Assembly (NCBI GenBank): GCA_017506865.1
Contig: JAFCMP010000078.1
Coordinates: 186,001-250,000 of the forward strand
Direction: 5' to 3'
Length of the DNA stretch: 64,000 nt
Source: Tribonema minus
Lineage: Eukaryota; Sar; Xanthophyceae; Tribonematales; Tribonemataceae
Shown: positions 3,201-57,697 of the stretch, piece after piece
Position numbering within the stretch: the stretch's first letter is position 1
How the letters are laid out: every line of letters starts with the position of its first letter
Notes under the pieces: model-generated
What the model was told of the DNA's origin: nothing
The model's database searches: none
The model's input: only the letters and a program-made list of their open reading frames with translations
Position numbers and translations under genes: made by a program

Positions 3201-6200
3201 GACAGGCCAGATCAACAATCATGACAATTGTGACAATTGTGGCAATTCTGTGTTAGTGTTAGGGTTGGGGATAGAGTTACGGTAATGCCAAGTGTGCTTG
3301 GGAGTACCCTAACCTTGCAATTGCATGGCGTCATCTCTTTGTGTACGTGACACGGCCTGCCCTGCCAGAGCCAATGTGTGACAATATGTTGTCAGCAGGA
3401 GGCTTATGTGCCTTATTTGCCTTTGGCTGATCTCAGAGTCGATGTGAGGCAACTCTAGCCCTTACCCTGATGGTGTGCCACGAACACCCGTGCTGCACCT
3501 GAACCTGCAGTTCTCTAAGGGTTAGGGCTAGACATACAAATTCATGCTAGTCGTGGCCACCAGCGCTGACCAAAGGCGTTGCCATAATTGTCTGCCGCTG
3601 CTGTCGCAGTTGAATCGACTTGAGGGCGTTGGCGAGCTCTCTCTTGCAAGGTGGGCATCATTGCACAAGCAGAATTAGAGTTATAATGCACTGTGAGAGG
3701 ACTGCCAGAACCGCTAGTTTTGAAATGGCACAAGTTATGCTGCAAACATGTACTCCTTAGTATGTGTGTAGGTTTAGCTTAAGGGCCTTTTGTTTTTTGA
3801 CCGCGCATTAGTTCATTAAGTTTACACTGTCGTGAGCAAGAGGACCAGCTTTGTTTCATGTTTTCTGCAAATTTTCAGGCTGGTCTTCAAGAAATTGCAT
3901 CACAATCAGATACCTGCATCCAGTGGTAAGAGTCCAAGTGCATCTGCATGCGCTTGTCGTGGCACACAGCAAGCAGTGGCACAAACACAGTTATGCAAGA
4001 CATACAGAAGTACTACTGCCCCATATCCATTGCTGCCATGCGCTATATACGCCTTTCAGTGGTTTTCAAACACAACCACGCACAGCGAGCAAAGACCAAG
4101 CTGACAGTGTTTGCTTTGCCCACACTGATGAATTCAGAAGCAATGTGAAGGCGAGTCAGCACGAGCCCTAACTTTTGATTGTGAGTCAGCACTGGCCCTG
4201 ACCCTAGGTTGTGACGCATTTGAAATATTAAGTGACATGGCATTTCATATGTAGTAGTTGATCGCGGCAAAGTTCAAGTTTGCACCATCATCAGCCATGC
4301 ACCCCATGCTATGTACAGATGAGGTTGACTTCAACTGTACTGATGCACTTCAACTGTACTGATGTACTCATGTATGTATGTGTATGCGCGCGGTGTGTCG
4401 CAGGCTGGTCACTCAGTTTGGCAGCCCCACCGAAAAGGATGGCAAGGGGCAGCGTGTGGACAGATCGTCGCACATCATGTGCGCCACAGAGGTGAGCACT
4501 GCCACAAACTGTGCGTGCTGTATATTATCTATTTGAACATCATGTGCGCAACAGAGGTGAGCACTGCCACAAACTGTGCGTGCTGTATATTATCGATTTC
4601 AACATCATGTGCGCCACAGAGGTGAGCACTGCCACAAAACTGTGCGCGTGTTCCAAGTATCTGTTTCAACAATTCTGACACGGAACTGCCGTCAAAAATG
4701 AGAGGACAGAGAGGATTGCGACTGATGTGCCGAGACTCGCTGGTGCCTGCAAATATTGCTCCCCCGCCCCCCTCCCCCCGCCCCCCTGGGGTTGTGATCT
4801 GTGTAGCTGCAAAAAAGCGTTTCAGAGGTCGGATCTTTCCATCCAGTAGGCACACGAATGCCTTGTGTGCAGTACATGGCGTAACTAAGTGTTCCTCTTG
4901 GTGTCACCTTGCTATGTGACGTGCTTAGCAGGGCATTGCACTGACAGCATATACTCATGGACTTGACATAGATTTATTCAATGGGGGGGCATGGAGTTGC
5001 AGAGAACTTCATGTGTGGAAGTGGTTTTGCTCGTCACCTTTGCATTCCTGCGAGAGCATGCTTGCACAGCATGCCAGTGATTGACTTGCTAGCAATCAAG
5101 GACCCCAGACTGATGGTTGGCTCCCGATTTAGAAGCACGAGAGATGTGGTAGATCACATTTTCATGTCAGGTGTATGCAGTGGCCTCAGGACCGTGACAG
5201 GGTGGTCAATGGTCCAAGAGCAAGGGGGTCAAGAATACACAATGACATTATTAAGGATGATCAGTACTGCTGCTGCTCACTGTTCATCGACTTGCAGTTC
5301 AAGGTGAATTCTTGTCGTGATGAACAGATCCTTCTGAAACTGTCCGTTATCAACTCATGCTTTTGAACAATACATTGTGTAACTGCTGAATCCTCATCCT
5401 GCAGGAGGGTGAAATATTGCTTGCCGACTGGCGAGCAAGGGGGCAGGGCGGCAGGGACGACGAAGGCACTGCTGCCGCCGCCGCCGCCGCCAATGACGAC
5501 GACAGTGCTCTGCCTGAGTTTGTCAAGTGGGTGGGAGGCGACAAGTGCCGCCCCTGCGTGAGCTTCGAGAAGTCGCCGTTCTTTCCAGGTACGTTCTGTG
5601 TTTTAATTTCAAGTGTAAATTCTAAGTATGAAAAGTGCACAACAGCATCGACTACCACAGTGTTCTGCCTGAGTTTGTCAAGTGGGTGGGTGGCGACAAG
5701 TGCCGCCCCTGCGTGAGCTTCGAGAAGTCGCCCTTCTTTCCAGGTACGTTTGTGTTTAAACTTTACGTGTGAATCTTCATGCACAGACGACTTTGCGATG
5801 TGGTGGAGTGGCAACTCATGTATTCGCGTTGCCCATTCATGCTTCCAGTCTGCTGCTTTTAAGAGATGGCAGATGAAATTGTGAGGCGCTGCACGCCCGA
5901 GCATGTTGCCCCCTGCATGTATTGCCTTCTGCGCGTTCACACGGGGACGTCCTTGGGATGGTAAGAATTTGATATCGAGCAGAAGCCAGCCACGTTGTGG
6001 ATTACATCCCCCTTCCCCCCCTTCAGTAACTCGTATGTATGTACGGGGTGACTGCGCATGAGATCGCGTGATGGCCACAGTAATACTGAAGCATGCCCTA
6101 GCGTTAGGGTTAGAGATGCCGCATCTGCACGAGCCCGTTGCTGGCGTGCCTGTTGTGGATGCCGTCATTTTTCGATTGCCACAATTAGCGGTTATACTGC

Positions 6201-9200
6201 ACAGGTTCATCATTTGAGCGTGATGTTGAAAGGCTCGTCCCAAAGTTGTGAACTGTGCTCCTGTCAAACAATGCACTCCTCACAACCTCTTCATCATTTA
6301 CTTCAATTTTGAAGTAAACAGTTGCAGTAATAACAGGCATTGCTGCAATCACGCCTGTTCTTTATTCCAGACATCCTGCTACTGGTTGCGGACTCGAGCT
6401 TTCAGCTATGGCGGGTGGACTGCCAGGCACCTATCTTCACTTCGCCGCCCTCAAACGCAACCATCACAGGTGATGCAACAACAAAAGTACTTTTGGTGGC
6501 AGGGGCTCAAGGTTCAAGGCAGTGCAACCATTACATTAGTATATACGTGTACGCACCACATATGTATGCACCGTGATGAAGTCGCACACCCCCAAGCATT
6601 TTGTCACTGAGCAACCTCCACCTGAGCTGACGGTAGTTTTTTTGTTTCCAGAAGACAAATGCAAATGCACATGCGGCGCTTTACTTGCAAATGAAGAGGG
6701 CCGCCGCCCAATGCAAGTCCGAGCTCACCCGAATTACATTCCGTGTGCGTCAATATCACAAGTATTGTTACATCGGTGCTCGTTTGTGGAGGCCTATCTG
6801 AGTCGCAGTCTGACTCTGATGCCCATCAGCAGTACGCTTGCAGCTGGAGAGTTTCGCCATGCATAGTACATGGGCATTGGCTGGACTCATTTGCACTGCA
6901 AATGCATTGGAAGCATCAAGCCTGAGAGCATCTGAAGTGCTTCAAAGCACCAGCGGATGGCATCCAGAGACGGCAGGGTTAGGGTTAGGGTTAGGGTTAG
7001 GGTTAGCACTTGAGCCACATCAGTCCGTGCACATTAGTCTTGTGCATATCATATCTATGCGTAAATATTTGTGGGCCTGCTGCTGCTCATGCACTGGTGT
7101 GCTGCCGCCGCTCACTGCATTGCGAGCGTGACACTAATCAGCTTCAACTCGAAGAGAAATTAAACTTGAACCTGCATGAAACTTCAACTTGAACTTGCTT
7201 GCAGCCGGCCGGTGGTCGCCCACACGTCCTGCTACGATACTGCTGGGGAAGTCGGATGGCACCATTGACGCGTGGGACCTGGCTGACTCCAGGCAAGTCA
7301 CACACAAAGAACTCTGACGTGGCACACGAGTTGACACTTTTTCGCAATCATTGGCAGCAATGGACAGCGATCCGTATGCTGCGTAGTGTGTACAAGGCAC
7401 ATCACTCCCGTTTCCCCTGTTCAGCGCTGAATTGCCGATTAGTGCGAGTGTATTGCCAGTGCGCCAGTTGCAGTGCTGACACGACAAACTGACGAATGCT
7501 TTTAAGGGTTCGGGTGAGGTTTAGGATTAGGGGCGAGTATGCCTTTTTGCACTACACTTTGGTACTGCCATGCTCAATATGCCAGGCTGCATCCACAGGC
7601 TTCGCTGGCCTCTTTGTGTGCCATTGTACCCCGTACACCGCGCCCTCTGCACTGCTGTGACCGTTTTGTCGTGAAAAGCAGCATGGACGCCCTTTGCGCC
7701 TGCAACCCCGCCCCCTGTGCACTGATGGGCTTGTATGCACCGGTGGCACTGCTTAGCATGTTGAGCATGCTTAACATGCTGTGTCCCCGATACGCTTTCC
7801 TCGCGGATGCCCCAACCGCTTTGCCTTTCGAAACAGCTACGCACCCACGGCCATCCACCTCAGCACTGCTGCTGTAACTACTTGTTTTGTGTTATGATAC
7901 AGCTACACAGTGACGCACTCTCTGCCTGCAGCGCCCCTGCGCTGCCGCGCGACCGTTTCACCTTGTGAAACAGCTACACGCCCACAGCCATCCACCTCTG
8001 CCCTGCTGCTGCAACTATCTGCCTCCTAACACAGCACACAATGGCCCTCCTATAACGCCACCGCCTCTGCACTGGCGCCGTGACCGTTTTGCCTTGTGAA
8101 ACAGCTACGCGCCCACGGCCATCCACCTCGGCGCTGCTACTGTAGCCATTTACTTCCTCACAGCAGCTGCGCGCTGACATCATTTGCGCCCGATATGCTG
8201 CCGCCTCCGCACTGCCGCCGCGACCGTTTCGCCTCGTGTAACAGCTACGCGCCCACGGCCATCATGCCGTGCTCGCCCTCGCGCATCACGACCATGGAGT
8301 TCCTGCAGCACGTGCCCGCCAACGCGCAGGCGCAGCAGCAGCAGCAGCTGCTCGCTGTGGGCGACGCCGCCGGCAACCTGCACGTCTTCGATGTGCCGCA
8401 CAGGTGACACTTGCTTGAGGTTGCTATCTGGAAGATTGTTGAAGTACAAATGTGCGGAGTATCGCGGCAGTGCAAGGCAACCTGCGCGTCTTCGATGTGC
8501 CGCACAGGTGACGCTTGAAGTTGCTACCTAAAAGTTTGTTGAAGTACGATATGCGCAGAGTAGCCTGCACGTCTTCGATGTGCTGTGCAGGTGACACCTT
8601 GAGGTTGCTACCTGGAAAATTGTTGAAGTACGACGGGTGCAGAGTATGGAAGCAGTGCTAGTGTTCCTCTCATTGGGGTCCATATCAATATGCTGCACAG
8701 GTGATACTGAAATCAGTTCGTGGTTTTTGAAGTACGATGCATGCAGTTTTGGGCAGCAGCGCAGGTGTTCTTCCTGTTCTGTGTCCGTACAGCTCATTGG
8801 AGGAAGATAGATTGAAAAAAAAAAGTGCAGTACTTCAAGAGAAGTGCAGGATGTGTCTGGTTGTGACCATCATGTATGCTCTTGTTGAAAAGGGGATTGC
8901 AGCACGCATCGGCAGCGCTGCTGCTCGCGTCGTGTGTGCAACAGCGCGATGCTGGCAGCAAACTACATACAGTCCTCAACCTGCCTCAAGTACTGCACTG
9001 CCGCTGTGCAGCAAGCTGTACACCACTGGGTAATCAACTTGCCTTGGATGCGTACCGCAGATGTAGACATACCCGTATACCCCTATGTAAGCACATGTGC
9101 TGTGTACGTGACCTGTGTTAAATCCTTGCATCTCACCCAGGGTGTGGATGAGTGTAATTGTCAGCATCAAGTGGGTCTGTATGTATGCATATAGGCGTTT

Positions 9201-18215: not shown

Positions 18216-18881
18216 CTTTTGCAAAGCCGCCGTCGCCGTCGCCACTTATGAGCCCCCCTCGCGAGTGCTGCTGTCGCTGCTGTCGCTGCTGCCGATGCTG
18301 TGCCGTTGCCGTCAGACGACCTGGACAATGCAGCTGCGGCACGAGACATCTAGATGCGGGTCACACAGTTGGCGCAAAGTTTTCTGTACGTCAATGACGA
18401 CTAAAGAACTTCAAGCAGGCAAAGTCGCGAAGAGACAATCTGCCTTGGTCGTTGCGCGGGGCGGCACCTTGGCGCGAAGGCAAGCGCTGACCTACTCATA
18501 TTCACGCCTGAGTGAGCTACGCGCGGGGCTCGCACAAGCAGGTCTCGCACAGGTCACCTTTGCGTGTGTGTGTGTGTGTCGGCATTTATTTACTCTGTCA
18601 AGAATAATCGTGCATAGATAATAATAATCGTGCATAGAACTGCCAACCACACTCGTCATCACATATATTTTGATATATGCAACAGTATGTGTGTGTGGTG
18701 TGTGTGTGATCGGATGATGATGTGAAAAGTTTTGATCCATAAGTTGAAGTGTCCTAATTAGGCCAAGTGGAAGCACTTTTACTTTTTCAAAAACTAGTAA
18801 TTGGTGCAGGAGTGCTGCAGTTTTATGCGCATACCTATATGCAACTGTGCATGCATTGGCACTGACATGATCGGGCATCGC

Positions 18882-23704: not shown

Positions 23705-23746
<42 letters not shown>

Positions 23747-27465: not shown

Positions 27466-30400
27466 TCATACTGGTCCCGGAGGGTACATGACGGCACCAG
27501 GTGCAAGCATCATGGCGATTCCAGGCGGCATTTGCGCGTTGCCGGTGGCGCATAGCTCATTGAAGGCCTGTGCACAGAGCCAGGGTTAGGGTACGGGTTG
27601 AGGTTCATCAGGTGTTGCGTCAGGATCAAATGTCAAATTGCGATATGCGAGATCATTGCAAACACAAAAAGAAGTTTACCCGAGGCACTGTACTGCATGA
27701 CATTTGATTCAGGACAGCCAGCCTTGCGTGGGTGTGTCCATCTCACAGACAAATATGATGCGAATGAGATGGCGTACTTTGGCAAGTGACACTTCAAAGT
27801 GGCAGCTCACACTCAAGCGTGCAGTTAATTGTGCCTAACTTTCAAGAGCCGGAATGCAAATCATTGTGAGCAATGCCCCTGAAACCCTATTCTTCATGTG
27901 CGCCACTGCGGTCATGGACAACTCTCACGGTCAATGTGAACACTTCGCTTGTTCGATGCAAAGCCACCACCATGCACCATTTCAACTTCGGGCTTTCACC
28001 ACTGCCATCACTGCTAATGCCATGCTCGAACCTGACAGTATTCAGCTGCGACGATGACATACCTCTTCCAAGCAGCGCTTGATGTCCTCATACGACGCCA
28101 CGAGTATGTTTCGCTGGTCTCTGCTGGTGAGCAGGATGCGCTCTGGATCTCCAACGTCCAGCTTGTTGAGGCACTGCAGCATGTGGCCTAGGTCCAGGTG
28201 GGCTGCCCCAGTCTCATCCACCTGACAATTGCACATGTCACCATGGAACAGTCAGATTGTACGTGCACGTGTCACATATAGAAAAGTCAGTTTGTACTTT
28301 GCGTGGAGATGCTCTGTAGGCATGAATACAGTACCTGCAGCACAGAAAACAGACCAGCAAATGCAGAGCTCAGGGTAGCAGCAAGGGACAGACAAAGAAG
28401 TTTTTAAGTCAACACATGTTGCACATGAGATAGTCGCCAGAGAAACTGGCAGCACAGCACACATGTGTGATGTGTGCAATCACGGCAGGATCAATGTCCA
28501 GTCTATGAGCATTGAAGCACGCGGCAGACAAGCAACAGTTGTGCTGCCCCTACATCCCACTTACTTGACAACCAAAGTACTAGAAGTACATGTCATCACG
28601 AAAAATCAAAACAGCAAGCCACCAGAGAGGTGCGGTGATCAACTACTGCCGTACCTGATGAAAGCAGTAGTCCCGGAACAGCTTGAGCACATATCTGTCG
28701 CCCGTCTCTGACCAGCCGCCGCCGCTCACACCCCTCTGCGTGTCGGGCCGCTCATTTACGGCACCGAGCTTAAGCAGCAGACGCAGCAAGCGCCCGTTGT
28801 CGTACTCTCCATGCAAGTGGCTGCAAGAGCGCGCAGCCGAAATGGCACAATGGCGGAAAGCGATCAGTACTGCCGCTTTTGATAGTGATAGTGCTGGGGC
28901 AGCGTATGCATAAAAGTACGTGAATATCTGCTGCAGCGTTGCGTCATTTCTGCAAGTGGCAGAATTGATCAGCACCGCCGCTTTCAGTGTAGTCATGTGG
29001 GCTTCGGTGACGCATGCCTTGCACGTTTTATCTTTACCTGCAAAGGGGGGCACATTTGATCATGCCCGGAAAAGCTTAAAAAGGAGTACGTTCCGCAGCA
29101 TCCATCCATGAGCCAGGTAGCTTCTGCTAAGAACCCTGACACGTGAGTATATCTAAATCATATACTTCACAGGTTATCTAAGTTCGTGAACAGCGCTATC
29201 AGTCACAGCAGCACACAACGAGATGAGAGGCACAAAGACAAGCCCCACGCGACGCGGCATGCACTTGCTTGTCTCAATTGTGCTTCGCGGACATATTCCG
29301 AGTTCGCCCATTTCGCCTTTTCCCTGCCAGTCTCGCTGACAACTGCGCAGTAACGTGCACTCATTAACACACACATACATACATACATGCCTGTGGAGCA
29401 CGAGTCACGCTGACTAGTGCACACATCAATCCATACACGCATTCTACGTACAACTTTAACATACACACATGTCTGTGGAGCACATACACACCAATCATAT
29501 ACGCATCGTATGTACATGTGTACCTGTGGAGCACGTCGCATTCGTGGTGCGAGGCATCCAGGCAGTCGGCCATGTGCGGCGCCGCCATTACCAGTGCCTG
29601 GTCCAGCGGAACGCCGCGCAAGCTGAGCTCGTACAAGAAGCGCCAGAGCTCAGGGGAGTAGTTGGCCTTGATGAAGGACAATGAGCCGGGTAGGTTAGGG
29701 GCGCCTGAAGCCAGAGGGGGGAAGCACACAGGGGGTTTGAGAGATGAACAATGGGCGTGGTATATCATCATAGCCAGTGGGCATCAGAGTACGAACTGAT
29801 CTGGGCAGGATAAATGACCAAAACGAAGACTGGCAGCTTGGGGGCGCCTGAAGTGCGAGGGGGGGGGGGGGGGGGGGGCAGCACGCAGGGGGTTTGTGAG
29901 AGAAATAACGGGCGTGCTTTATCAGAGGCGGTGGGCACCAGAATATGAAATGACCTAAGCAGGCTGTATGTTCAATGAAGCGTCTGCTGTGGAGGCCGAG
30001 CCCTGCACAGTCATGCTGCTGGCCCAAGTCTGCAGCCATGCCATTTCATAATGACAGTTCATAATGACAGGGAAAGCAGAATCCCCCTAGAGGCGAGCGA
30101 CTCCACCTCACTTTGCCTATTGCATGGGAGGGGGCGCGGGGGGGGGGGGTCATCCGCACCCCCCAATCAGACTCAACTTTGAAATTGAAGTATGCACTGA
30201 CCACACTCCCCCTTTCCCTGGCACCCCAGCTTGCGATGTATAGTGTCCCCTGGAGATCCAATATTTGTAATCATAGGTATGAGTCCAGTGGACCACGGTG
30301 CAGCAGCTGCGATGCATGTTGTCCAACTCCGTAGTGGTGAAGGTGGCAAATCAACATGGCAGCACTCCGCTACCAGCGCTCAAGCTGTTCCAAACGTTCA

Positions 30401-33400
30401 AAGTTCCAACACAGAATGACACGGAATGCATCTATGCCGCATGCACTACACTCGCAAGCTGCACACCCCACCTTACTCACGCCCACGCCCAGTGACAGGC
30501 GGCCTACCAACACTACACGACACTTGTGCACCGTGTGCACCATGCAAGTGCCTCCAAGCGCATTACACTTTTCTTAAAGCCTGCCACAAAGATACTACTT
30601 ACGCTGAGGCGCGCCTGGCCACTTCTGGCTGGTACATCAGCATGCGGCAGCCACAACAGTGCGAGCAAAGGCGTTGATGTCACTTTCTTAGGATTAGAAT
30701 TAGGGTTTATTTCATGCTCAGGCTCTAGATACTCATGTACATGCCCGCTGCGGTAGCAGACAGAGACCCTGGATTCCTGCAACCTTTATTTCAAGACACC
30801 ACTTCAAGACACCACTGCCCACGACAGAGATGGCCGAGCATGCTGCGTGTTGCGGGCAGTGCCAAGTGTCGTAGACCTGCGCGTTGTGCGCTGCCTCAAC
30901 AGTTGAGCGCTGCTGCACACATGGAGCGCTGCCGCAACCAGTGTTGAGCGTTGTCATCACCCTGAGCCGACGCAACCCAAGACACCACCGAGTTCGCGCG
31001 CTCGGAACATCTCCCCTGGTCAGCACTGCGTGCCCACACAGCTTCCCACCCGCGTACCTAGTCTAAATGCCGCCCGGTCAGCAAAGGGGAACCTGCAACA
31101 TGCACAAGTACCTCTCGCCCGTGCTTACTGACAGAATTATCAAAACACTGAGTATTACTGCAGCCATCCAACACCGTACCTGACTCACTCACAAGGTTGT
31201 CAAAATACCAAGATCACTGCAGCCACGCAGTACCGTACCTGGTGCCACCCTGGCCCTGCACGCGATGGAAATGACCGTGCACGCGAGTGCCTTGATGTCA
31301 GCATCGCGCCCTGCCGCTGCCGCCGCTGGTAGCGTGGACAGAGCCTCGTACTCCAGCGCGTTGTGAACGCCTGCCCAGTTGATGCGAACGCGGCCACCGG
31401 GGAGGAGCAGCACGTGCTCTGGGGAGATGTGGCGGCAGGCCATGCGCGCGTCTGCCATGTGGACGGCGCGCACCTGAGGGGGGTTGGGGGGGGGCGGGTG
31501 TTAGGGGGCGGGGGGGGGGGGTCAGTGTACGGATTGTTTCATGCAACTTTCGCCAACGTGCTGGGAACAGGGTGAGGGTTATGCAGCGAGAAACATATTC
31601 AAAACCCCAAGCGTCAAGCTGCGCATCATATTCAGAGGTCAAGTTGTCTGCAGCATTGAACTTGAGCAGCTGCCGCAGGAATAAGCTTACGCAAGTGTTG
31701 CAGTCCCCATGACGTATGGTTGCTGCAATTACAACGGCTGCCAGTATCCTAGGCAGCAGCTTCAAAGACCAGATCAACCTAAACCTTTTGCCAACTTGCG
31801 ATTTGCACGGAACATTGAAGCTGACATAAAGATGTTATTCTGAATAGCAGCCGGCCTGTGCTATTGGGGTTTCACATTCGCAGCGAAATGGGCTCATGAC
31901 TACATTTAGTTCAAGCAGTTGAGGTCAGAAGATTCAACTAGCTGTGCTTACCGCGGAGAGCAGTTGGCAGCCAATGGACCACAGCAGACCCTCTGGCAGC
32001 AGATTGCCGGGGCGCTCCAGGTATCTGAGGGTAGGTAGGTATAGCGAGCATCACACAGTGAAAGATATGGTAAGACATGCAGCACGTCATGATGCACATA
32101 TAGGACCGTGAGGGCCAGGCAACATACACCACTTCATGTAACAGGTATAGGACCGTGAGGGCCAGGCAGCATATGCTGCTGAAGTGACAATCAAATCTTA
32201 CTGACACATGTAAAACCGGACGGCAGCAAGTGAAGTAGTGGTGATGGGGTTCGGTTAAAAACGCAATTACCGTATTGAGGCAAGGCAGTCTTACCGTATT
32301 GAGGCAAGGCAGTCTTCAAAAATGAATCACCACAATGGCAAGCGCGCCACAAAACAGCAGGCACTTGAACACAACGCGCTGATACGTCCCCGCAACCAGT
32401 GCTTTCAGGCGCTGGGTGCACACCATAATGTAAGGATTTGCGCATGCAAATATTTGAGACAAATCCGTTCCCTTCAGCAATGCCTGGTGGGGCAAAATGT
32501 CTCTTGACAAACACCACCAAGCCATTTTCTCCGACAAAAATTGTGCACAGCGCCGCCAATGCAACAACACAATGCCACACTGTCCTACATAGAAGTACAT
32601 GCATACCGTTGTGCCAGCGTCTCCGCACGTGGGTGGTAGTCCTCCACAAAGAAGGCGCAGCCCTGGTACATGAAGGCTTCCTTCAGCTGCACCAGGCCGG
32701 GGTGAGCGCTGACACCATGCCACATTTCTGACCAAAAAGTGCAAGCAGGTGCAGGCAGTCTGAGAAATTAGTGCAAATGTGTTGTTGAGGTAGCATAGCA
32801 AATAAAGCAAGAGCTACCGACACCGTGCCACATATCTGACGGAACACAAGCAGATGTCTTTGTTTCAAGGTACTGCTAACAATCAGGGCACGAGCTGCTG
32901 CTGTCCTGACAGACCAAGGGCAGACCCAGGCACGAGTGCGCAACAGCACAAGTGTTCATGAAGGTTGGGCAAGACTGGTCACATTCTGACATGGTGCGGC
33001 AGACCCAGGCAACCATAGGAAGTGAGTGAACATGTGAACACAAAAATGGGCAAGCGTCAGCAGTTGCAGCAAAAGTCACAACAACACGGGGCTGGTGCCC
33101 AAACCTAACCCTAAGCCAGTGACCTCTGCGCTCAGCCCTGACCCTACTTGTGACCCCTGGCCCTGAGCGGGCCTTGTGTAGGGGGATGACTGCGCGACTG
33201 TTACAGCGTCAGGAGTGTCTGTGCATGAGTCAAGTGGCATGGCATGCAGTATTTTCAATAGCCCTCATCCGGAGCCCTAACCCGACCTCATTTCTAATCC
33301 TAACCTCAGCGCTATTGAATCAGACAATGACCACAGTCGCCATGCATACTCGCCCAGTGTCTCCCGCCACGTTGGCAAAACTTCAAGGATGACATGCCTC

Positions 33401-33916: not shown

Positions 33917-33948
<32 letters not shown>

Positions 33949-42862: not shown

Positions 42863-44850
42863 ATGGCTGAGTGTGTAGTCATAGCCGCCATCTTAGTGGC
42901 CTCGTTCTCTTTCGCCTCGGTGTCAGTGTATGGAGCTGCGCACGCTGCCGATTGCTATTTCAGACGTCGTCGAGAGGTGAGTGGGATGACGCATATGTCT
43001 AGGTCTGAACCTATTAGTCTATCGAAGTAGAGCATGTTTTGCTGTACGTTAGCGCTGAACACCAGGTGCACAGCTGTATCCACTTACATTGCCGTCTAGT
43101 TATGGTCTTATCATTCTCCGAAGCACCTTGCACTGACCTGCGCACGTACCTATCACCAAGTTTATTCTCCACCATATAGCGCCTTTCCAACTCTTCGTGC
43201 TTTGTGCTGTCATGTTGCTGTCGTGTTCATGTTGGCTGCAGCGATACGGTGTGCGAGACCTGTTCCTTCCCTTCACAGTACCAGCGCGCAATGCTTCCTC
43301 AAAAGTTACCTCCGATCGCAGCAGCGACATGAGCAGAACCGCTCGTGGCAGCAGCTTTCGGCAACGACTAGCACGCAGACTCAAGAAGCTTAGGGTTAGG
43401 ATTACACCCTTGAAGCGGTTCAAGCGGAAAAAGACAGAGCCATATAAATTGAAGCCCGTTGAGGTGCTGCCGGATGGGAGCTTCAAAGTATATGGGTGCC
43501 TTCCCTACGATGACGTCTGCACCATCTGTTTGGATCCGGTGAAGGTGAGGCATGTATCGAGACAAGGCAATGCAGAAGGTCAACATTTCCGCACAATGCA
43601 TTAACGTTATTGTTATGTGGCAGCGGATGGGCACTATAATTAGATTTCCAAAGCATGGGTTGTTTGCTTGAAGTTGTTGGCAGTTGGCATTGCAGTTGAC
43701 ATGCAACTGCCGTAACTTCAACATGCCAATGAGAGTCAGCGCAATTGCTCCACTACACAGGCCAGCGCGCACGAGCTCCATGAATCGTTGCGCACCAGAA
43801 TTGAGATGCGGTGTGCCAACCACTGCGGTATCCTTGTAGTACCACCAGCCGCTCTGCAGCCACCGTCCTCTACAAGGCTTCGTTGGTCACACATTTCATG
43901 TGCTCAGCGTGGCCAACAACGACATCAACGGCGTCGTATGCATACGCCAGAAGCACCACACTTCCCAACCCTTCAAATATCCCTTCCTCCGTCCCTACAC
44001 GGCGCCTTGCTCACTTGAAGTTGATAACTTGAAGTTGTCCGCTTTGCCGTCTCAAAGTTGCTGCAACCCCATGACCGCGCCGCACAGCGCCGCAGGAGGG
44101 CAACAAGATGGCGCTCATCGCGTCATTACACCCCTCGCTGTGTTCACTTGAAGTTGCCCTCTTGAAGTTGCCCACTGCCGTCTCACACAGGCCACTGTCG
44201 TCATCGCGCCACGCCGCAGGAGGGCGACAAGATGGCGCTCCTCGCATCCCTACACCTCGCCGTGCTGACTTGAAGTTTAACACTTGAAGTTTCCAGTCAC
44301 ACTTGAAGTTTTTACTGTGCGCCGCAGGAGGGCGACAAAAAATGTCGCTCCTCGCCTGCCGCCACGCCATGCTGACTTGAAGTTTTCAACTTGAAGTGCT
44401 CCACTTGCCATCTCACACACAAAAGTGTGCTACATACCCCATCCCTGCGTCGCGTCACAGGAGGGCGACAAGATGGCGCTCCTCGCCTGCCGCCACGCCA
44501 TGCACCTCACGTGCGTGCGCCCGTGGCTCGCGTCCCACGACACGTGCCCCGTCTGCAAGATCGACCTGCACGATGTGCACACGCGCGCGCGCCGCGCCCT
44601 GTCGCAACGCTCAACCACACCCTGGAACCACGGCGACAGGGACGACGCCGCGGCGGAGGCGGCGCTGGCGCTTGTCGCCGCATTCTCAGACTCAGACTCA
44701 GACTCGCGGGAGGGGCAGTTGAGCGCTGACATGTCGCTGCTGGAGGGCGTGGCAGCGATCAGCGGGCAGGGCTGCGGCGGCGGTGGCGGCGGGGGGAGGG
44801 AAGGGGCGTGCGCACGGCAGCGGCGGCAGTCCACGCTGCCTCTGTCGTGA
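42863..44850 (+). CDS. Membrane-anchored RING-H2 zinc-finger protein (putative E3 ubiquitin ligase)
   Basis: Exons 42863-42976, 43242-43544 and 44461-44850, all phase 0, give 268 residues. A single N-terminal membrane segment (VVIAAILVASFSFASVSVYG) is followed by a basic linker (RRLKKLRVRITPLKRFKRKK). A canonical RING-H2 finger follows: C131-x2-C134-x14-C149-x-H151-x2-H154-x2-C157-x10-C168-x2-C171, with the conserved Trp161 that contacts E2 enzymes. The finger is split by the second intron between DPVK and EGDK. The tail is acidic, then Gly-rich (SDSDSDSREG; poly-Gly). The layout of TM then RING-H2 resembles ATL-type ligases. The substrate is unknown. The ATG is the first in its frame, but the frame is open upstream, so a 5' exon is possible. 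TGTAA at ~44883 may be the poly(A) signal. Confidence 0.87.
44080..44490 (+). repeat. Four tandem copies of the RING exon-3 acceptor region
   Basis: CAGGAGGGCGACAAGATGGC, the acceptor and start of exon 3, appears with its junction at 44095, 44220, 44328 and 44461 (spacings 125, 108, 133). TTGAAGT motifs lie between the copies. The first three are decoys: a transcript entering at them would run into intron with stops. Confidence 0.93.
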
Positions 44851-46374: not shown

Positions 46375-49300
46375 TCACGCCTTGACGTTTCCAGCGAGCA
46401 TGGTCTCCTTGTTGATGAGGTGCGTGGTGTGCTCAAGCAGCCGCAGCAGCGAGCTGAGGTCGCTGTTCCAACTGCTGAGCACTTCCTCGGATGGCTGGGG
46501 CTGCGCACAATAGAGGAGTGAGATGCGAGAAATGGAAGGAAGCGGGTGACGAGTTGAAACGCCGTTAAGATCCTAGCGCTGTAGATGTGCGGATTTAAGG
46601 AGCACTGCGAGTCTCACATCAAACACCAGGGGCTGCACGCAGACGAGGAAATGATTGCGGAGTTGAAATGCCGTCCCAAACCCAGTTGTGTGTTGTAAGG
46701 TTTGCTCTTTTTTTTGTGAGCGCTATTTTTTGGGTTTGAGTTTCACAGCAAACACATCGTCTCTGGAACCAAAGTAGAGAAGCAACAGATTTCTGACTTT
46801 TCAGCACGTCTTGCGGCCGCTGGCCTGCAAAACACAACGCGAAGGTGCACAACAGCGCCGTCACGTGTTCACCATGAACATAGCTCTATTGCGGTCAACA
46901 GTGTGGCAATAATGGGAAATTGCAAACATGGACATGGCTTAAGTGCAGCGAGTGTCAACAGGCAAACAAACGCACGCACGCTGCACCAGGCAGGGTCATG
47001 TACAATGGACGGTGACCCCAACCTAACCCTAACCCTAACCCTAACCCTGAATGGCTCAGGGCGCACGACCTGCTATGGCTATGCAAAGAGCCGCACGAGG
47101 CTGGGCTGACCCTCAATTCAAACCCCAAATCTAAACCTAGCGAGTTGCCTGGTGCCTGTGTCGCACGCGACAGACACAGCACAACGCCACAAGCAGTTTC
47201 ATGCCGGTGACAGCGTAGTTGTGAAGCTGATCAATGGCAAGCGCTGCTGAGATTGGGCAACCAGGGCGACGTCAACGTGCCGGCAGCATGCCACTTCTTG
47301 AAGCGCCTAGATTCCATCTTTGAGAACTAACAACTAAAATGACCCACCAGACTCAGTGAGGTACAGCCTGGCAAGCGGCACCAAAGTGAGTCCAATGAAG
47401 TGAGTCACTGAGTCAATTGGGTCCATGAGAATGAGTCCAATGCCGCGATGATGGCCGCCTACAAGAGAACCAACGAACTTCGTTAGGCAGCTCTCTTCGT
47501 AACAGCGGTCACCGGAGGGTGCACCTGAACATCCACACTTTGCGCTTCTATATACATGCATACCTTGGAGAAGGAGATGATCCCCTCGGGCCGGTTGATG
47601 CGCGCATACAGCGTGCCGTCGCTCACCTGCATATAAGCCACACCAGCAAAGAAAGCACATCAGTATCGTTGAAACTAGATAACCCTACCCCAGCCCTGAC
47701 CGTAACCGTTGCCCAAATTTGACCCTAAACCTAACCCTGACCGTAAGTGAATGACTGTGCCAGAGAGAAACGTGCAACATCAGGCTGCTCAAGCAGAATT
47801 CAGCAAGGTGTGGGAGTCTCCTGTGTGACAGGGCGGACATATTTCATGTGGCTGGTGGCCACGCAGTTGTAATACAGCACTTGGCAACACATGGCATAGG
47901 TTTCAATCAAACGAAAGTCTGGCACTCTGCAGCCTTGACACCACACTGGGTGACACATGTGATGGATGCCGATGCGCACATGTACGTGCCGATAGCGTTT
48001 GGGTCATAAGGCTTGACAAACTACAGTACACACGGCCCGCCACTTCATGTCACCACTCACTGGCCCTTGCCCTCTTGCCCTGATTCTTAACCCTAACCCT
48101 ATATTTATATCGCACATGTTCACATGCACACACCATGGTGCTGAGCGACCGCTCTCTGGTACTGCATGTTGGCCATGTGCATACATGCACCACATGATAC
48201 TGGCTCTATGGTGCTATATATGAACCATGTATATACATGCACACCATGGATCTGAGCTCAATGGCGCTATATAGAAGTATAGACCATTTCCATGCACACC
48301 ATGGTGCTGAGCTCTGTGGTACCATGTAGGCCATGTATGTACATACATACGTACACACCTGTTGCATGTCTATATATATATACCATGTGCATACATACCA
48401 TGGTGCTGAGCGCGACCGCTCTGTGGTGCTATATATATACCATGTATGTACATACATACATGCACACCTGCTACATGTGTATATATATATGCAGCATGTA
48501 CATACATACATACCATGGTGCTGAGCGACCGCTCTGTGGTGCCTTCGTCCAGGCCCAGAAGCGTCGCGAGCCTTGCGGTCCGAATCTGCTTGTAGTACTT
48601 GGCAGCCACGCGGATGTTGTGCTGAACAACGCGCGTGTGAAGGTCCTTCAGCCATTGCTCCAACTGCCACAACACACGGTAGCAAGTTGAGGTGGAAGGT
48701 GGGGGTGGGGTTAGAATTGAGACAGGATTAGGGTTGAAACGTTCTATGTAGAACCATTGCTCAACCTGCCGCAACACATGAAAGCATCTAAAAGTACCAT
48801 TTACAGTTATAAGCTCAATTCAGCCTGCAGGTAGGAGGAAAGTGCACAAGATGCTGACGGCTGGAACAGTCGCGAGCAGCGACAACAGCCGCAGGCAGAG
48901 TTGCTGTTTACACACACACACACACAGACACACACAACACACACACACACAAGCCGCACTCAGCAGCAACAATCAATCAACATGCTGGCAGCGGGTGCTC
49001 CCAGGCAGAGGAGGCCCCTCATAATGGCCCTGGCACAAGCGCCTGCAGCTGTCGCAATTGTCGAGGTCCCTCAGGGGCCGTGCAAGGCACTGTACAACAA
49101 AAGGTGGTAGGAGACGAGACAGTTGACGTGCCCTGCACCGGCTTCATGTTGAAAAAGGGCAGCACCATGGGTTGCTCAAACTACATGCCGCAGACCTCCG
49201 TGCAGGCAAGCTCGGGGTCCTCCCAGTGAGATGGGGCATGCAGTTCTAGCATCCAATGGTGCTTTCCTTTTGCACCATGTGGCCTGTGTAGGGCACGTCA

Positions 49301-52300
49301 ACCGTCTCGTCACCTACCCCCTTCTTGTTTTTTGCGCGGGCCCCGAGGGACCTCAACTACCGCGACAGCCGCAGGCACTTCTGTTTAAAGTAAACCAACT
49401 TTGATTAAAACAGCATCGGCATACCCACTTCCAGACCAAACGCAGCTGAGCGGCTGAAAAGCTTGCACACTGAAGTCTTTTGACTACTGTGGATATGATG
49501 GCACTGTTTGACTCGTGGCCAATAAGTGCAGCAGCGGCGACCACGGTCGTTGGTGGAAGGCACTTGCGGCTAACCACTTCTTGTCACCTGGAGCTCTACG
49601 ATCTTTTTATTTGTTGCCATAAAATGTGTCTGGCACATGTGTCACTTTCAGCAGCAGCAGCAGCAGAACTCAGCATCACATGGTCGATACTTTATGATGC
49701 ACTTCATCTGTACTTCAAAGTATACGTACTGCGTTCAGAAAACGCACCAGTGGTGGTCCAAGCTCCGGGTCTGTGCCGGTTGCAGCAATGCTCTCCTTGA
49801 TGTGTGCCTGACAGTTTGAAAACACAATGTGCAACAAAAACACGCATCAGGACAAGTGGCGCATAGGTAACACTTACAGTAACACTCTGTGAAATCTTGA
49901 TTTGCAATCAGACGAGAATTCCTGCCTCCGAGATGGCTTTCTCTTTGTAGGGTTAGGGGTAGGGTTAGGCAAGCAGGCGGATTGGCCGAGAATGTGACAT
50001 GGCGTACATGTCGCAGCTGCTGCTGCGTGCAAGGCTTCCACCATGAGTACCAGCTGAGTGCACATGACACACACTGACTGAGCACTGATGAACACTCAGC
50101 AGCTGAGCGTTGATGACACTATCAGTCACTGAGCACTGCTGACGTGATTGATGAGCGTTGGTGATGATGCAGAGCTCAACTTCAATGACCAACTTCAATT
50201 ACGCACTGCAGCAGTAGATGACTGAGGTGAACTGAGCACTGATAACTCAGCTGCTACAGCTGGACTTGTCATAAAGGCTCATGGGCATGATACACCAGAC
50301 GAGCGCTCTGGGCATGAAATACCTACATACATGCTGAGTGTATCGGTCAAAGCAGCGTAACCTCAACGATACATAGAAGGCTGTGCGTACACCTGCTGCC
50401 TCTGGGCTAAGCAATTGGAAAGCACTTTCTTGAGGGGCGCATATGACAAAACAGCCCAACCTCAATGACAGATAAAAGGCTTTGCGCATCACATGCAATG
50501 TCCATTAAGCACTGAGGGGGGCATGCATCGCTTGAGCAACGCTGTACTATGCTGGTAGAGCACTGAGAAGACACTGCCTAAGCAGTTTGGACCACATTGA
50601 TAGAGCACTGACGAGGCATCAGCTGAGCAGTACATTGACACGCCATGCCTCACCTCAAGCTCTGCTGCAAACACCAGCGGTTGCGCGATGGTATCAAACG
50701 TGATACATCAGCTAAGGGGTCTTTTTTATCGATGTTGGTCGGCCAAGACACGTCGGCTGAGTGACGCTGACACTGCATGCCTCACCCCAAGCTCCGCCGC
50801 GAACGGTTGATCAATGTTCTCGTACGATGCGTTGTACATCAGCTGAAGAATATCGACCCTGTCAGTTGGCCCCCATTGACACATCAACTGAGCAACGCTG
50901 ACACTGCGTGCCTCACCTCAAGCTCCGCCGCAAACGGCAGCGGGTAGTCAATGATCTCGTACGTTGTGAACAGCTTGAGCAGCGTCTTGTAAGACGTCAG
51001 CTCATCCAGCTCGGGGTACCGGGACTGGTGCAAGAGAACAGAAGATCATGTCGAAACAGGTTCAGATTGCAGTGAGCAGTGCAATGGGTCATGTGTATTG
51101 AGGTCATTGGGTGATACACCTGTTGCATCAGCGCCTTTGTAGATTGCTCGCAGTGAGCAGTGCAATGGGTCATGTGTCTAGATCATTGGGCGGTACTACT
51201 GTTGCGTCGGCCCCTTTGTAGATTGTGCATGTCAGTGCAGTGCACGCATGTTTGAGTAAGTTTTGGGTTGAGTTTTGGAGTAAGGGTCAGGCAAAGGTTG
51301 AGCAGGACAGCGAGGATTGTGCAAGAGCAATGGGCGTACGCAAGCAGTCATCACACGGTGGGCAGCACTGGTGCTGTGGCACGCAATGCAGCTGTGATGG
51401 AGTACAGACGCTTCAATGGCTAGCGCACACACACACAACGCGCGCGTTCAGTGCACTAATCACATACAGCTGCTCACCCAATGGTGCGCGTAACGCTTTC
51501 TTCAGGCTGAACCTCAGGACACCCATATGTGTTCACAAAACTGCTGCTAGTGCTGAAGTGCGCGCAGACAACGCGTCACGACACAGCTGCACTTCAGCCG
51601 CTCTCTGCAAAACACACACGACCTCCGCTGAAAAAAGCTCATCATGATACTTCAAGTACAACACTCAGCCGCTTTCTTCAAGAACACACAAGCTTCACTG
51701 AGTTCACCACGATACTTCAAGTGCGACGCTCACCACTCTGTGGAGCATGTCCTGCTGCGTGTTAGTGTAAGGGCTCAGCACCAAGTACACGACGCAGCTC
51801 TTGAGCGCTGCCTGCCGCTGCTGAGCATCCGCCTTGATGATGGCGGTCGCGAATATGGCGTGGTAGTCGCAGCAGAGCGAGAAGGGGTCCTTCTCGTGCA
51901 GGTCGTAGTCCAGCATGAGCCTGTAGAAGCGCACTTTGAGCTCCTGCATGTCGTCCCCCTCGATGATCTGGCCATGCGGGCGACAGCGGGCAGAAAGCGC
52001 AGTATGTGCTATTGTGGACGAGTGTCGAGGTGTGTACACGTACATGTATAAACTGTACTTCTATTAAAGATACTGAGCCTGCAGAAGCACACTGTGAGCT
52101 CCTGCATGTCGTCTCTCTCAGTGATGTGGCTATGTTGGCATCAGCGCAGATGAGATGCAAATGCAAGTGGAGCACCATGACGTGGACAATGACAGGCAGG
52201 GAGCACGCGTGCGTTGTTTGAGTATGGAGTATGGATTGAGAGGAAAATCATGCACGCATGTGCGACGACATGGTGATGAGGCTGAGCCCGCAAACTGCGT

Positions 52301-55140
52301 GTAAGTGTGACACGAGTCAACTATGAAAGCAGTATGTAATTGTCAGAGTTAGGGTTAGCGTGAGGGTTACAACTGCGCGGTCCTGCATGCCGTTGCCCTC
52401 TCCAGACGATCTCGTAACATGTGCATGGAGAAGACTGCGCTCAAAATGACGATGCTCGCGGTAGAGTGCGTTGCCTGGATGTGTTCCGATTGTGAATGCA
52501 AAGTCTCCAGTCAAAAATAAGCAAAGTTGTGAAGTTGGAGAGGTGATTGAAGTTCATGCGCGGTGCCCGCCTCCAGTAATTGCAGGTGCACAAAAGCTGA
52601 CTAACCCTGAGCAGGGCGCACGTAAACCACACGTTATGAAGCTCATGCAGCCTGGTCCTAACCCTAACTCTTGACCAACCACATCAGGCCGCGTAGCTTA
52701 TCAGCTGCTTTGAGTGTTGGTGTGTTTGATGCCATGCACAACGCCCACAACAACAAGCAAGCAGTGTAGGGATCACAGTTCCAGATACGGCATTGTCCAA
52801 ACACAGTGTTGTTGGTCGCTCTCATCAGTGACCCTACATGTTGTAATAGTTTATGACAACACAAACAAGAGTGCAAGTGAGCATCACATGAAATTGCAAT
52901 AGACGAGTCAACATATCTGCAGTAAGGGCACCCCTTCTAAACTGTTCTGCGCTTGAGAGCTAAACCCTAACCCTAACCCTAACCCTCACCCCAAGGCTGA
53001 GCATCACCATCACATCAGAGTTCCCGATGGTTGACTTGTCACCAGGTCTGACGTTCAAAATGTCTGCACTTCATGACCGGCGCAGCACCGGTGCTGAGAG
53101 GCTCCAGTTTCAACTTCGATCGGCCTCAATGGACGACGTGTCATCAGGTCTAAAGTTCACAATGCCTGCACTTCATGGTTGGCGCAGAACGGGTGCTTGA
53201 GGCTCTAGTGTTTCAACTTCAACCAGCTTGCCCTATTCCTTCAGTACTGGTGTTCGGGTTAGGGTTAAGGTTTAACAATGACCAGCTCATACTTGGCTTG
53301 TCGATCAGGAGGCTGCTGAGCACGAACCTTGAAACACAGCTCAGCCCAAGAAAATTTGATGATTGCACTGCTTCACAACTTAGATTTGTACAGCCAAAAC
53401 TGAGTTTTGTACTGCATCAAGCACACGAAGTCGAATTTGTGAAGTCAGCAAATTTGTCTCTTTGGTGACAACTGCCGCAGCAATGCTCAATCAACGTCCA
53501 CCTGCGCATACTTTTTTGCCTCTGGACGTGTGTGCAGGCTGAGCCTCTCATGAAGATTGTAAGGTGCCCGGTTGCTGCGAAGTGCCGTTGGACGCGGCTG
53601 GATTTACTGCTGACGATCGACTCCGTAACAGAACTTCAAACAGTGACGTGCCACTGCTCGTCCTCACCTTGCGGTTGATCTTGCGGCTCTGTATGAGCGC
53701 GCGCACGTAGTCCTTCTTGAGCAGCGTGAGGCGCACTTGCTCCAGAATAAAGTCCGTCTTCTCCTTCTTGTCCAGCGCGCCATACGTCTCCACCGCCACC
53801 TCCTGCAGCACCTCCTGCGCCCCCGCAACGTCCCCGTCCTTCTCCTTGATGTCAGCGAGCAACCGCGTCAGACGCGCGCGCTCCCCCTCCACAAAGATTT
53901 TTCCTGCAACCAGGGGGATTCAAGGGCGGTGTGTGCTCTTGTGTTGATAGCAAACCCCACAGGGGGTAATGTCCTAGTGCACTGAGTGCACTGCTGGATG
54001 AGCTCAATCGCGTCAGTTGCGAGTGCTTCTTGTGCTTCCCTCACCCGCAACGCGCCTTTGACGTGTTGAGTCAACACTAGACAGAACTGTGAGCTCGCAT
54101 CAGCAAATCACACTTGCCATGTCAGCGCTTGACAGAACGCAACCACATTGGCTGCGCGTGCCGCCCCTCTACCAGCAATGTAGAGAGGCAGAACCACTAT
54201 ATTTTTGTCTGCAGCCGCCAAATAACCTACAGCCTCACAATGGTAACATCGTCATAGTCAGAATCTGAGCTGCGTGAACGTGTACTCTATGCTGCAAAGC
54301 CAAAGAGGCAGAGGCAAGAGAGTAAGCCATTGCAGCGTCGGTCATACATGACCATACCGACTTCCAACTTCATCAACACCGAGCAGCAGGGCATTGATTG
54401 ATGCACCAGCCACATCGGCGCTGCTGTAGCAGCTTCAACAGCACACACGCATGCCTTCACGTTCATCAACTCTTACCGTCTGTGATGTCTCGCAGGGCAA
54501 CGATGAGGGCTATTTTGGTGGCCTTGTCAGGTGTCTCATCCAGCCACAGCATGCACTCCTGAACCATGGCAGTTATTGTGCGTCCCTGCTGGCCACGGCG
54601 CTTGGCCAATAGCGTTGCAGTAGCGTTCAACTGCTCCCAATCTCCTGCCGCCTTACAGAGTCGCGCCATGGTCAACACCACCTCCTTCAGGTTATTGAAG
54701 TCGTTGCCCACGCGACAGTTGCGCTCCAACGTCATGAGGAGATCCAGGGCCTCATTGAGCTTGCCGCCCTGCAATGCAGACGCATCAATACGATGATCAC
54801 GATGTTGATGGCAGCTCAAGAGCTGTACAGCGTGGTTGAGGCACACGAAGCGAGCGCGCAACAGTAAACGCAGTCCTCTGCAGAGACAACACAACGCACC
54901 AACATGGCTACCACATGAGCGAATTGCTGCCCTGTCGATGCACTCAGTGATAGCAAGGACATGCCGCAACATTGCCAGAACGGCCCGCAGCAGCCAGATT
55001 TGCTGATGTAACAGAGCGCTTCTCCAGTATTCCGGCTGCACACAACATCAACACCGTACCTCTGTGAGCCTTGTCGCCTCCGGGACCTTGACCTTCAGGT
55101 CCTCCGTAAAGTCCTTGCGCTCTTCCAAGCGATCGCTCAT
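46375..55140 (-). CDS. RPN5: 26S proteasome lid subunit RPN5 (PSMD12)
   Basis: PCI-domain subunit of the 19S regulatory particle lid. Eight exons with continuous phase: 55140-55060, 54768-54477, 53903-53668, 51967-51734, 51024-50917, 48663-48514, 47626-47564, 46500-46375, giving 429 residues, close to the usual 440-456. Diagnostic stretches in order: [138 protein letters not shown] (PCI helices); [16 protein letters not shown] (winged helix); and the C-terminal helix [17 protein letters not shown] used in lid bundle assembly. Four exon junctions are duplicated in the introns. A retrotransposon lies ~170 bp upstream of the start codon. Confidence 0.96.
47022..47049 (-). repeat. Interstitial CCCTAA tract
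   Basis: Four CCCTAA units in the last RPN5 intron. Confidence 0.93.
48130..48540 (-). repeat. Five copies of the RPN5 exon-6 donor region
   Basis: CCATGGTGCTGAGCGACCGC (minus-strand exon end ...RSLSTM followed by the GTATG donor) occurs at about 48133, 48244, 48299, 48398 and 48513. ATATATA/ACATACATAC sequence lies between them. Only the copy at 48513 joins the full exon. Confidence 0.9.
48650..48790 (-). repeat. Duplicated acceptor region of RPN5 exon 6
   Basis: CCATTGCTCCAACTGCCACAACACA at the exon start (48651) recurs as CCATTGCTCAACCTGCCGCAACACA near 48753, about 100 bp into the upstream intron. Confidence 0.85.
50640..50945 (-). repeat. Three copies of the RPN5 exon-5 donor region
   Basis: GCCTCACCTCAAGCTCCGCC, the reverse complement of the exon end CTTGAG|GTGAGG, occurs with donors at 50916, 50785 and 50653 (spacings 131 and 132 bp). 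The flanking GACACTGC and CATCAGCTGA sequences are also repeated. Confidence 0.92.
51060..51230 (+). repeat. ~84-bp tandem duplication within an RPN5 intron
   Basis: GCAGTGAGCAGTGCAATGGG...CCCTTTGTAGATTG occurs twice (51069 and 51151). This duplication does not include an exon edge. Confidence 0.9.
51910..52420 (-). repeat. Copies of the RPN5 exon-4 acceptor region
   Basis: The exon start GAAGCGCACTTTGAGCTCCTGCATGTCG (51927) is copied near 52085 (GAAGCACACTGTGAGCTCCTGC...) with the following GATGT-GGC-ATG text. A third decayed copy lies near 52380. Confidence 0.87.
52962..52986 (-). repeat. Interstitial CCCTAA tract
   Basis: Four CCCTAA units in the RPN5 intron between exons 3 and 4. Confidence 0.92.
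53030..53230 (+). repeat. ~115-bp tandem duplication within an RPN5 intron
   Basis: TCACCAGGTCTGACGTTCAAAATGTCTGCACTTCATG..GGCGCAG at 53038 recurs, diverged, at about 53152 (TCATCAGGTCTAAAGTTCACAATGCCTGC...). Confidence 0.87.
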
Positions 55141-57690: not shown

Positions 57691-57697
57691 GTAGGTA

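What the first reader, a model, noticed from the sequence alone, without database searches (positions are those of the whole stretch)
4404..52420. Exon-edge tandem duplication: splice junctions copied into introns at 18 or more sites in four genes
In DNAI3, PAN3, RPN5 and the RING gene, the last or first bases of an exon, its splice site and some adjoining intron are repeated on the intron side. Junctions involved: DNAI3 donors at 4492, 5589, 8404 and 10377 and acceptors at 8245 and 10216; RING acceptor 44461; RPN5 acceptors 51967 and 48663 and donors 50916 and 48513; PAN3 acceptors 38846, 32727, 29704 and 28820 and donors 35826, 31238 and 29523. Copy number is 2-5 and spacing mostly 55-155 bp. 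In each case only the copy contiguous with the full exon makes a coherent protein, so the others are decoy splice sites. Similar tandem units also occur inside introns (16154, 51069, 53038), so the process may be general local duplication. Tandem duplication carrying AGGT is a known route to new introns. Such a dense, gene-after-gene pattern suggests an active intron-expansion process, or a splicing-control layout built from decoy arrays.
Basis: seen in the sequence. Interest (0 to 1): 0.9.

Follow-up and report, generated by a model that had tools for sequence, protein, structure and literature searches.

The report
Exon edges copied repeatedly into introns
In this algal genome many exon ends, together with their splice sites, have been copied, often several times, into the neighbouring intron, apparently as by-products of a local duplication process that favours exon edges and makes introns grow outward from them.

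Summary
In 53 further loci of the same 158-Mb genome (a stramenopile alga near Chrysoparadoxa), 39 of 151 homology-anchored exon edges carry an intron-side copy of the junction-spanning 40-mer. For edges pinned within 12 nt by protein homology it is 29 of 87; the reversed-target control gives 1 of 151. Copies are direct and almost all on the same side of the exon, 1-5 per edge, with quasi-regular spacing.

Within the same introns, junctions are 3.3-4.7 times richer in copies than intron interiors; simulated uniform duplication with purging of exon damage gives about 1.0-1.3. Copies look neutral: no frame preference, codon-position constraint or extra GT/AG conservation. The nearest copy usually scores best.

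Best reading: neutral tandem arrays seeded at exon edges and extended by slippage or unequal exchange, so introns grow from their edges; not a selected decoy layout, not AGGT intron birth. Why births favour edges is unexplained. No RNA was available.

The parts
4472..4646 (+). DNAI3 donor array: exon end + GTGAGC, edge at 4491; copies 4537-4586 and 4602-4646 (65-bp period, 2.7 units)
   Evidence: 98% identity
5495..5770 (+). DNAI3 donor edge 5588; last 94 exon nt plus intron start copied at 5650-5770
   Evidence: 92% identity, shift 155
7809..8263 (+). DNAI3 acceptor edge 8245; upstream copies at 8076-8123, 7945-7992, 7809-7855, spaced 140/131/137 bp
8372..8617 (+). DNAI3 donor edge 8403; copies at 8476-8529 and 8564-8617
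   Evidence: 88% identity
9889..10247 (+). DNAI3 acceptor edge 10216; upstream copy 9889-9923 (shift 324)
   Evidence: 94% identity
10362..10498 (+). DNAI3 donor edge 10376; copy 10459-10498 (shift 97)
   Evidence: 95% identity
38811..39065 (-). PAN3 acceptor edge 38846; copy 39010-39065
   Evidence: 81% identity
35679..35881 (-). PAN3 donor edge 35827; copy 35679-35763 (shift 118); exon part well kept
32700..32850 (-). PAN3 acceptor edge 32727 with upstream copy at shift about 105 (outer limits approximate)
   Evidence: score 20/40
29684..29924 (-). PAN3 acceptor edge 29704 with upstream copy at shift about 143 (outer limits approximate)
   Evidence: score 21/40
51916..52150 (-). RPN5 acceptor edge 51967; copy 52074-52150 (AG lost in copy)
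50623..50966 (-). RPN5 donor edge 50917; copies 50757-50829 and 50623-50680 (spacing 137/126)
48640..48790 (-). RPN5 acceptor edge 48663 with upstream copy at shift about 102 (outer limits approximate)
   Evidence: score 20/40
48106..48542 (-). RPN5 donor edge 48514; copies 48373-48429, 48215-48257, 48106-48160
44087..44503 (+). RING-gene acceptor edge 44461; upstream copies 44319-44372, 44206-44245, 44087-44121 (spacing 131/110/124)
51069..51225 (-). Tandem unit wholly inside an RPN5 intron (79 bp x 2), example of the background process
28820..28980 (-).
   Evidence: score 12/40, within control range

Best explanation
These are neutral tandem arrays anchored on exon edges. A local head-to-tail duplication, commonly 80-200 bp, that starts inside an exon and ends in the intron leaves the exon whole and puts a second exon edge with splice site into the intron. 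It can therefore survive, while duplications that break an exon are expected to be lost. The first copy then gives homology for slippage or unequal exchange, adding further units of similar period next to the exon and pushing older, more decayed units deeper. Introns thus grow outward from their edges. SHOWN: occurrence across a genome sample, direct orientation, same-side restriction, quasi-regular period, nearest copy usually best matching, neutral-looking decay, excess at edges over mid-intron in the one-direction design. INFERRED: slippage or unequal exchange as the extension step, purging of exon-internal events, a birth rate several-fold higher near edges, and that the copied sites are not used in splicing.
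For: At score 16 or more: 39/151 anchored edges, 29/87 strictly anchored, 14/46 window edges; for the 151, reversed control 1, inverted 2; opposite side of the exon 4/148. Of 196 deduplicated edges 54 have at least 1 copy (112 copies in all) and 30 at least 2. Successive spacings agree within 10 bp in 20/58 cases against 0.109 expected, and in 3/56 and 1/44 in simulations of independent events. Nearest copy outscores the farthest at 27/30 edges, p=4e-5; by identity 21 against 9, p=0.015. Neutrality: exon-part mismatches 10.9/8.4/12.6% by codon position, spacing mod 3 of 26/24/32, no GT/AG spike. Edge excess 3.3-4.7x within the same 31 introns, and 2.4-2.7x for pure intron sequence 30-90 bp from the edge. 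Simulated uniform births give a nearly flat profile; one of two runs with a four-fold edge bias gives levels close to those observed.
Against: Only 9 of 71 junction pairs are still similar over most of the unit; the rest need decay or deletion of the spacer. A test searching both directions gives a near/mid-intron ratio of only 1.1-1.4 with intervals including 1; I judge the one-direction test fairer, since an exon edge can have copies on one side only, but the size of the bias depends on design. Copy-versus-copy identity is higher in the exon-derived 20 nt (0.75) than in the adjacent intron-derived 20 nt (0.60), which pure neutrality does not predict, although finding copies through the exon edge may cause it. 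25 of 87 exons contain internal copies, from repetitive exons or gene-model errors, so purging of exon-internal events was not shown. In the simulations the nearest copy also tended to score higher (23:10 and 18:10), so that gradient alone is weak. No RNA supports the gene models.
Confidence: 0.7

Rival explanations
1. Uniform neutral tandem duplication plus selection only: duplications arise evenly along genes, and exon edges merely look special because exon-breaking ones are purged and exon-anchored copies last longer.
For: Local copies are also common in intron interiors (about 6-12% of 40-mers looking one way; about 20% looking both ways), and the both-way test finds little edge excess. 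Copies decay in a neutral-looking way.
Against: The one-direction profile falls from 0.295 at the junction to 0.057 at 350-500 bp, with 0.103 at 510-900, in introns where the full search target is intronic. Uniform simulations are nearly flat. The excess is also present among well-matching copies (6.7x at score 28 or more, interval 3.1-22) and in pure intron sequence next to the edge.
Confidence: 0.2
2. Selected decoy or regulatory splice-site arrays: the copies are kept to buffer splicing, make alternative isoforms or allow stepwise (recursive or stwintron-like) intron removal.
For: 71 of 82 junction-spanning copies still have a canonical dinucleotide; exon-derived parts of copies resemble each other more than intron-derived parts.
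Against: Retention is near what about 10% divergence per base predicts; no GT/AG spike; no frame preference and no codon-position constraint; acceptor copies lie upstream of the true site and should tend to be harmful (inference).
Confidence: 0.08
3. Templated insertion during break repair: short stretches near a break are copied into it, not tandemly.
For: Copies are often much shorter than their spacing (median length/shift 0.15-0.38 by class).
Against: No inverted copies at score 20 or more (0/197) and only 2/194 on the opposite side of the exon at that score; spacing within an array is quasi-regular.
Confidence: 0.1
4. [quoted passage not shown]
For: Donor copies carry the exon end with its splice site.
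Against: The donor and acceptor junctions of one intron resemble each other in 1 of 45 introns, and that one is a predicted 129-bp intron within a repeat array. Introns are long (median 913 bp).
Confidence: 0.03
5. Assembly artefact.
For: The assembly has 554 contigs and no reads were available.
Against: Window copies differ from the reference by 2-19%, and copies occur at edges on many contigs.
Confidence: 0.02

Closest known systems
[quoted passage not shown] potato RdRp case, PMC4974935)
   Same: A head-to-tail duplication crossing an exon-intron boundary copies exon and splice signals; in the potato case the duplicated segment likewise crosses an existing boundary (abstract and introduction read).
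   Different: There it makes one new intron in one gene. Here no new intron is made as far as tested, the existing one is lengthened, and a quarter to a third of sampled exon edges show it, often with several copies.
[quoted passage not shown] seen only as cited in PMC3443670 and PMC4974935)
   Same: Duplications inside genes are common and can carry splice sites.
   Different: The citing passages speak of duplicated segments, whole introns and new introns; edge-anchored arrays left in introns are not mentioned in them. The original was not read.
[D] stwintrons of Lipomyces (PMC7138796, passages read)
   Same: Duplication of a donor element within an extant intron is proposed as a route to complex introns.
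   Different: Those are proposed duplications of 4-7 nt giving functional nested introns shown by cDNA; here the copies carry tens of exon nucleotides and no use is shown.
Intronic minisatellites (general knowledge, recalled)
   Same: Quasi-regular tandem arrays of tens to hundreds of bp that change copy number by slippage or unequal exchange.
   Different: Each array has its own unit taken from the neighbouring exon edge, and arrays are concentrated at edges.
Introners (PMC9860276, PMC7789003: search listings only)
   Same: Genome-wide intron-altering process.
   Different: Introners are dispersed families; here the unit is private to each edge (junction probes match introns of other loci at 0.7% at score 16 and 0 of 1626 at 20).

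Membership tests
Tandem (minisatellite-like) array | copies in direct orientation, close together | tested here: met
   53/197 direct same side against 2/197 inverted at score 16 or more
Tandem (minisatellite-like) array | regular period within an array | tested here: met
   20/58 successive spacings within 10 bp against 0.109 null
Tandem (minisatellite-like) array | whole unit repeated head to tail without spacer | tested here: inconclusive
   9 of 71 junction pairs; the rest may have decayed or lost spacers
Tandem (minisatellite-like) array | copy-number variation between individuals | not testable with these tools
   one genome only
AGGT tandem-duplication intron gain | donor and acceptor junctions of one intron are copies of each other | tested here: not met
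   1/45 introns, inside an array
AGGT tandem-duplication intron gain | intron absent in relatives | not testable with these tools
   no genomic sequence of a eukaryotic relative was available
Selected decoy or alternative splice-site array | copied splice sites conserved above their surroundings | tested here: not met
   no spike at GT/AG in positional identity, 31 donor and 24 acceptor copies
Selected decoy or alternative splice-site array | reading-frame or coding constraint on copies | tested here: not met
   spacing mod 3 26/24/32; mismatches 10.9/8.4/12.6% by codon position
Selected decoy or alternative splice-site array | copied sites bound or used by the spliceosome | not testable with these tools
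   no RNA data
Stwintron / recursive splicing | consecutive excision through nested introns | not testable with these tools
   needs cDNA of splicing intermediates
Introner | one sequence family dispersed over many introns | tested here: not met
   junction probes against introns of other loci: 0.7% at score 16, 0 of 1626 at 20
Templated insertion in break repair | copies in both orientations and on either side of the source | tested here: not met
   inverted 0/197 and opposite side 2/194 at score 20 or more

The most novel reading that the evidence does not exclude
This lineage has a mutational process that is itself aimed at exon-intron boundaries, coupled to transcription, splicing or chromatin there. 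It repeatedly duplicates exon edges so that introns grow outward from their exons, leaving layered remnants of former splice junctions that the splicing machinery must routinely ignore.
Probability: 0.35. Interest if true: 0.85.

Novelty: new variant of a known kind. Interest (0 to 1): 0.66.

Why it matters
Duplications across exon boundaries are known as single events that can make introns. Here they appear at a quarter to a third of sampled exon edges, so the process can be counted, dated and tested. If the edge bias holds genome-wide it gives a source of intron length that is neither transposon nor introner, and a bias in where duplications arise that a uniform model does not predict. If the sampled rate holds, the genome would also be a large natural test of splice-site choice, with very many close copies of a true donor or acceptor lying tens to hundreds of bp from it. 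Copies of different age beside one constrained reference could further serve to measure intron substitution and deletion rates.

Tried and rejected
Intron birth by AGGT duplication was tested and rejected (1/45). A dispersed repeat family or introner was rejected by the other-locus control. Templated insertion was disfavoured by the near absence of inverted and opposite-side copies. Selection on the copies was tested in three ways and not seen. A dependence on GC content was weak (deep intron 0.047-0.069 over quartiles; near the edge 0.10-0.18). A first alignment script mostly returned trivial self-matches for acceptors and was discarded. A both-directions test gave a much smaller edge effect and led to the stricter one-direction design. 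Rows dropped: 17 of the first 68 loci, whose matches held stops or were not whole codons, from training and from the edge set; 6 of 174 predicted edges without canonical dinucleotides; 4 of the 50 window edges for the same reason (46 left); seven loci overlapping longer ones and two edges in an L077 array with an unreliable gene model; 3 of 154 genome edges with too short a target. Searches are on the undeduplicated set. Paper searches listed no title or abstract start reporting exon-edge arrays on this scale; that covers open-licence PubMed Central text only, and most listed papers were not opened. No eukaryotic control genome could be searched.

Full report
WHAT WAS CHECKED. The window lies in contig C78 of a 158.18-Mb, 554-contig genome. 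Its RPN5 protein, joined from seven exons (the last one guessed), is 70% identical over full length to a Chrysoparadoxa australica protein, 67% to an unnamed one, and about 62-64% to brown algal ones, so the source is a stramenopile alga of that neighbourhood.

THE OBSERVATION. One search lists 63 local direct repeats in the window and none in three Markov-simulated versions. A longer gapped search finds 21 copies at 12 window edges and adds donor 35827. So 15 of the 18 junctions are supported, 31238 and 29523 are marginal, and 28820 is not supported.

GENOME SAMPLE. Exon edges were anchored by Pfam matches to WD40, proteasome, kinesin and chaperonin genes, with a small gene-finding model trained here. 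Before removal of doubly covered loci, 44 of 165 genome edges carried a copy; in the gapped search, window included, 60 of 210 did, with 0 of 210 for reversed targets. After removal, 39 of 151 genome edges do (score 16 or more), 33 of 113 when the edge lies within 30 nt of the end of the protein match, and 29 of 87 within 12 nt; the window gives 14 of 46. The better the edge is supported by homology, the higher the rate. By family, undeduplicated, it is 13/68 for kinesin, 3/14 for WD40, 13/40 for proteasome and 15/43 for chaperonin.

GEOMETRY. At score 16 or more, all edges together: direct same side 53/197, inverted same side 2/197, reversed target 1/197, opposite side of the exon 5/194. Spacing of junction pairs peaks at 80-200 bp; the median similar length is 63 bp (10th-90th percentile 38-135), and only 9 of 71 pairs are similar over more than 0.8 of their spacing. 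At edges with several copies, successive spacings agree within 10 bp in 20 of 58 cases against 0.109 by chance, for example 207/203/208, 118/124/128 and 140/131/137. Donor and acceptor duplications are about equally frequent (22/85 and 22/80), and both edges of one exon tend to be affected together (10 exons; odds ratio 4.1, p=0.018).

ARE EDGES SPECIAL? In 43 introns with both edges known, counting only probes whose 300-bp target lies wholly in the intron and looking away from the nearest edge, the rate is 0.295 at the junction, 0.222 at 30-90 bp, 0.180 at 100-160, 0.142 at 170-250, 0.121 at 260-340, 0.057 at 350-500 and 0.103 at 510-900. Within the 31 introns that have both kinds of probe the junction excess is 3.3 (interval 1.95-6.9) at score 16 and 4.7 (2.5-13) at 24; for pure intron sequence at 30-90 bp it is 2.4-2.7, lower bounds 1.3-1.6. 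A test that searches both directions gives only 1.1-1.4 with intervals including 1; it favours interior probes, which can have copies on two sides, but it shows that the size of the bias depends on design. Forward simulations with uniform duplication, deletion, substitution and purging of exon damage gave a junction/mid-intron ratio of about 1.0-1.3 in five settings. A four-fold edge bias decaying over 80 bp was run at two rates; the higher one gave a profile close to the observed one (0.28 at the junction, 0.07-0.10 at 300-420 bp). The simulated probes used a 450-bp target, as, not the 300-bp design.

ARE THE COPIES USED OR SELECTED? With copies ascertained on exon sequence alone, identity runs through the splice site without a peak at GT or AG. 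After deduplication, mismatches by codon position are 10.9, 8.4 and 12.6%, spacing modulo 3 is 26/24/32, and 71 of 82 copies keep a canonical dinucleotide, near what 10% divergence per base predicts (undeduplicated values agree). This fits neutral decay. Against it, neighbouring copies resemble each other more in their exon-derived 20 nt (0.75) than in the adjoining intron-derived 20 nt (0.60; null 0.37); finding copies through the exon edge could cause that, and I leave it open.

HOW IT GROWS. Among 54 edges with a copy, 30 have two or more (56%); independent-event simulations gave 37% and 28%. The nearest copy scores higher than the farthest at 27 of 30 edges (p=4e-5), by identity at 21 of 30 (p=0.015); simulations also lean that way (23:10, 18:10), so this supports sequential growth at the edge but does not prove a special mechanism. 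Regular spacing (3/56 and 1/44 in the simulations) and the excess of multi-copy edges point to homology-driven extension (slippage or unequal exchange) after a first duplication. That step is inferred.

WHAT IT IS NOT. Not AGGT intron birth (1 of 45 introns), not an introner family, not templated insertion, and probably not an assembly fault, since window copies differ by 2-19% and copies occur on many contigs.

LITERATURE. Read: PMC4974935 (abstract and introduction), passages of PMC7138796 and PMC3443670; other papers were seen as search listings only. Ten searches listed no title or abstract start describing exon-edge arrays at this scale; the library holds open-licence papers only.

LIMITS. 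No RNA, no relative's genome, no control eukaryote, about 0.3 Mb besides the window out of a 158-Mb genome, gene models without transcript support, and exon-internal copies in 25 of 87 exons that warn of repetitive exons or model errors.

Noticed in passing
anchored loci L001-L077: GC-AG introns are frequent: 13 of 87 anchored donors use GC, although the gene-finding model gave GC only a 3% prior.
   Followed up: partly
17733-29376 and 53198-63769: No local direct repeat was listed in these two stretches of about 11 kb, while neighbouring genes have many; duplication may depend on the gene.
   Followed up: no
13445-14644: 165-bp unit repeated about seven times within one minus-strand reading frame (cysteine- and asparagine-rich protein repeat).
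   Followed up: no
9547-9972 and 55388-57655: Two minus-strand reading frames share a protein stretch (KQTSLFVKEL...LLGHSAD), probably a dispersed mobile-element remnant.
   Followed up: no
6975-7006, 11479-11610, 36407-36441, 47022-47048, 52963-52991: Telomere-like TTAGGG tracts are scattered through the genes.
   Followed up: no
L077 3689-4370: A chaperonin-gene donor edge is present in about six copies, so that even the true exon edge is hard to name.
   Followed up: partly
G000 contig C223 32962-65868: Five proteasome-domain pieces within 33 kb suggest a local cluster of proteasome genes or pseudogenes.
   Followed up: no
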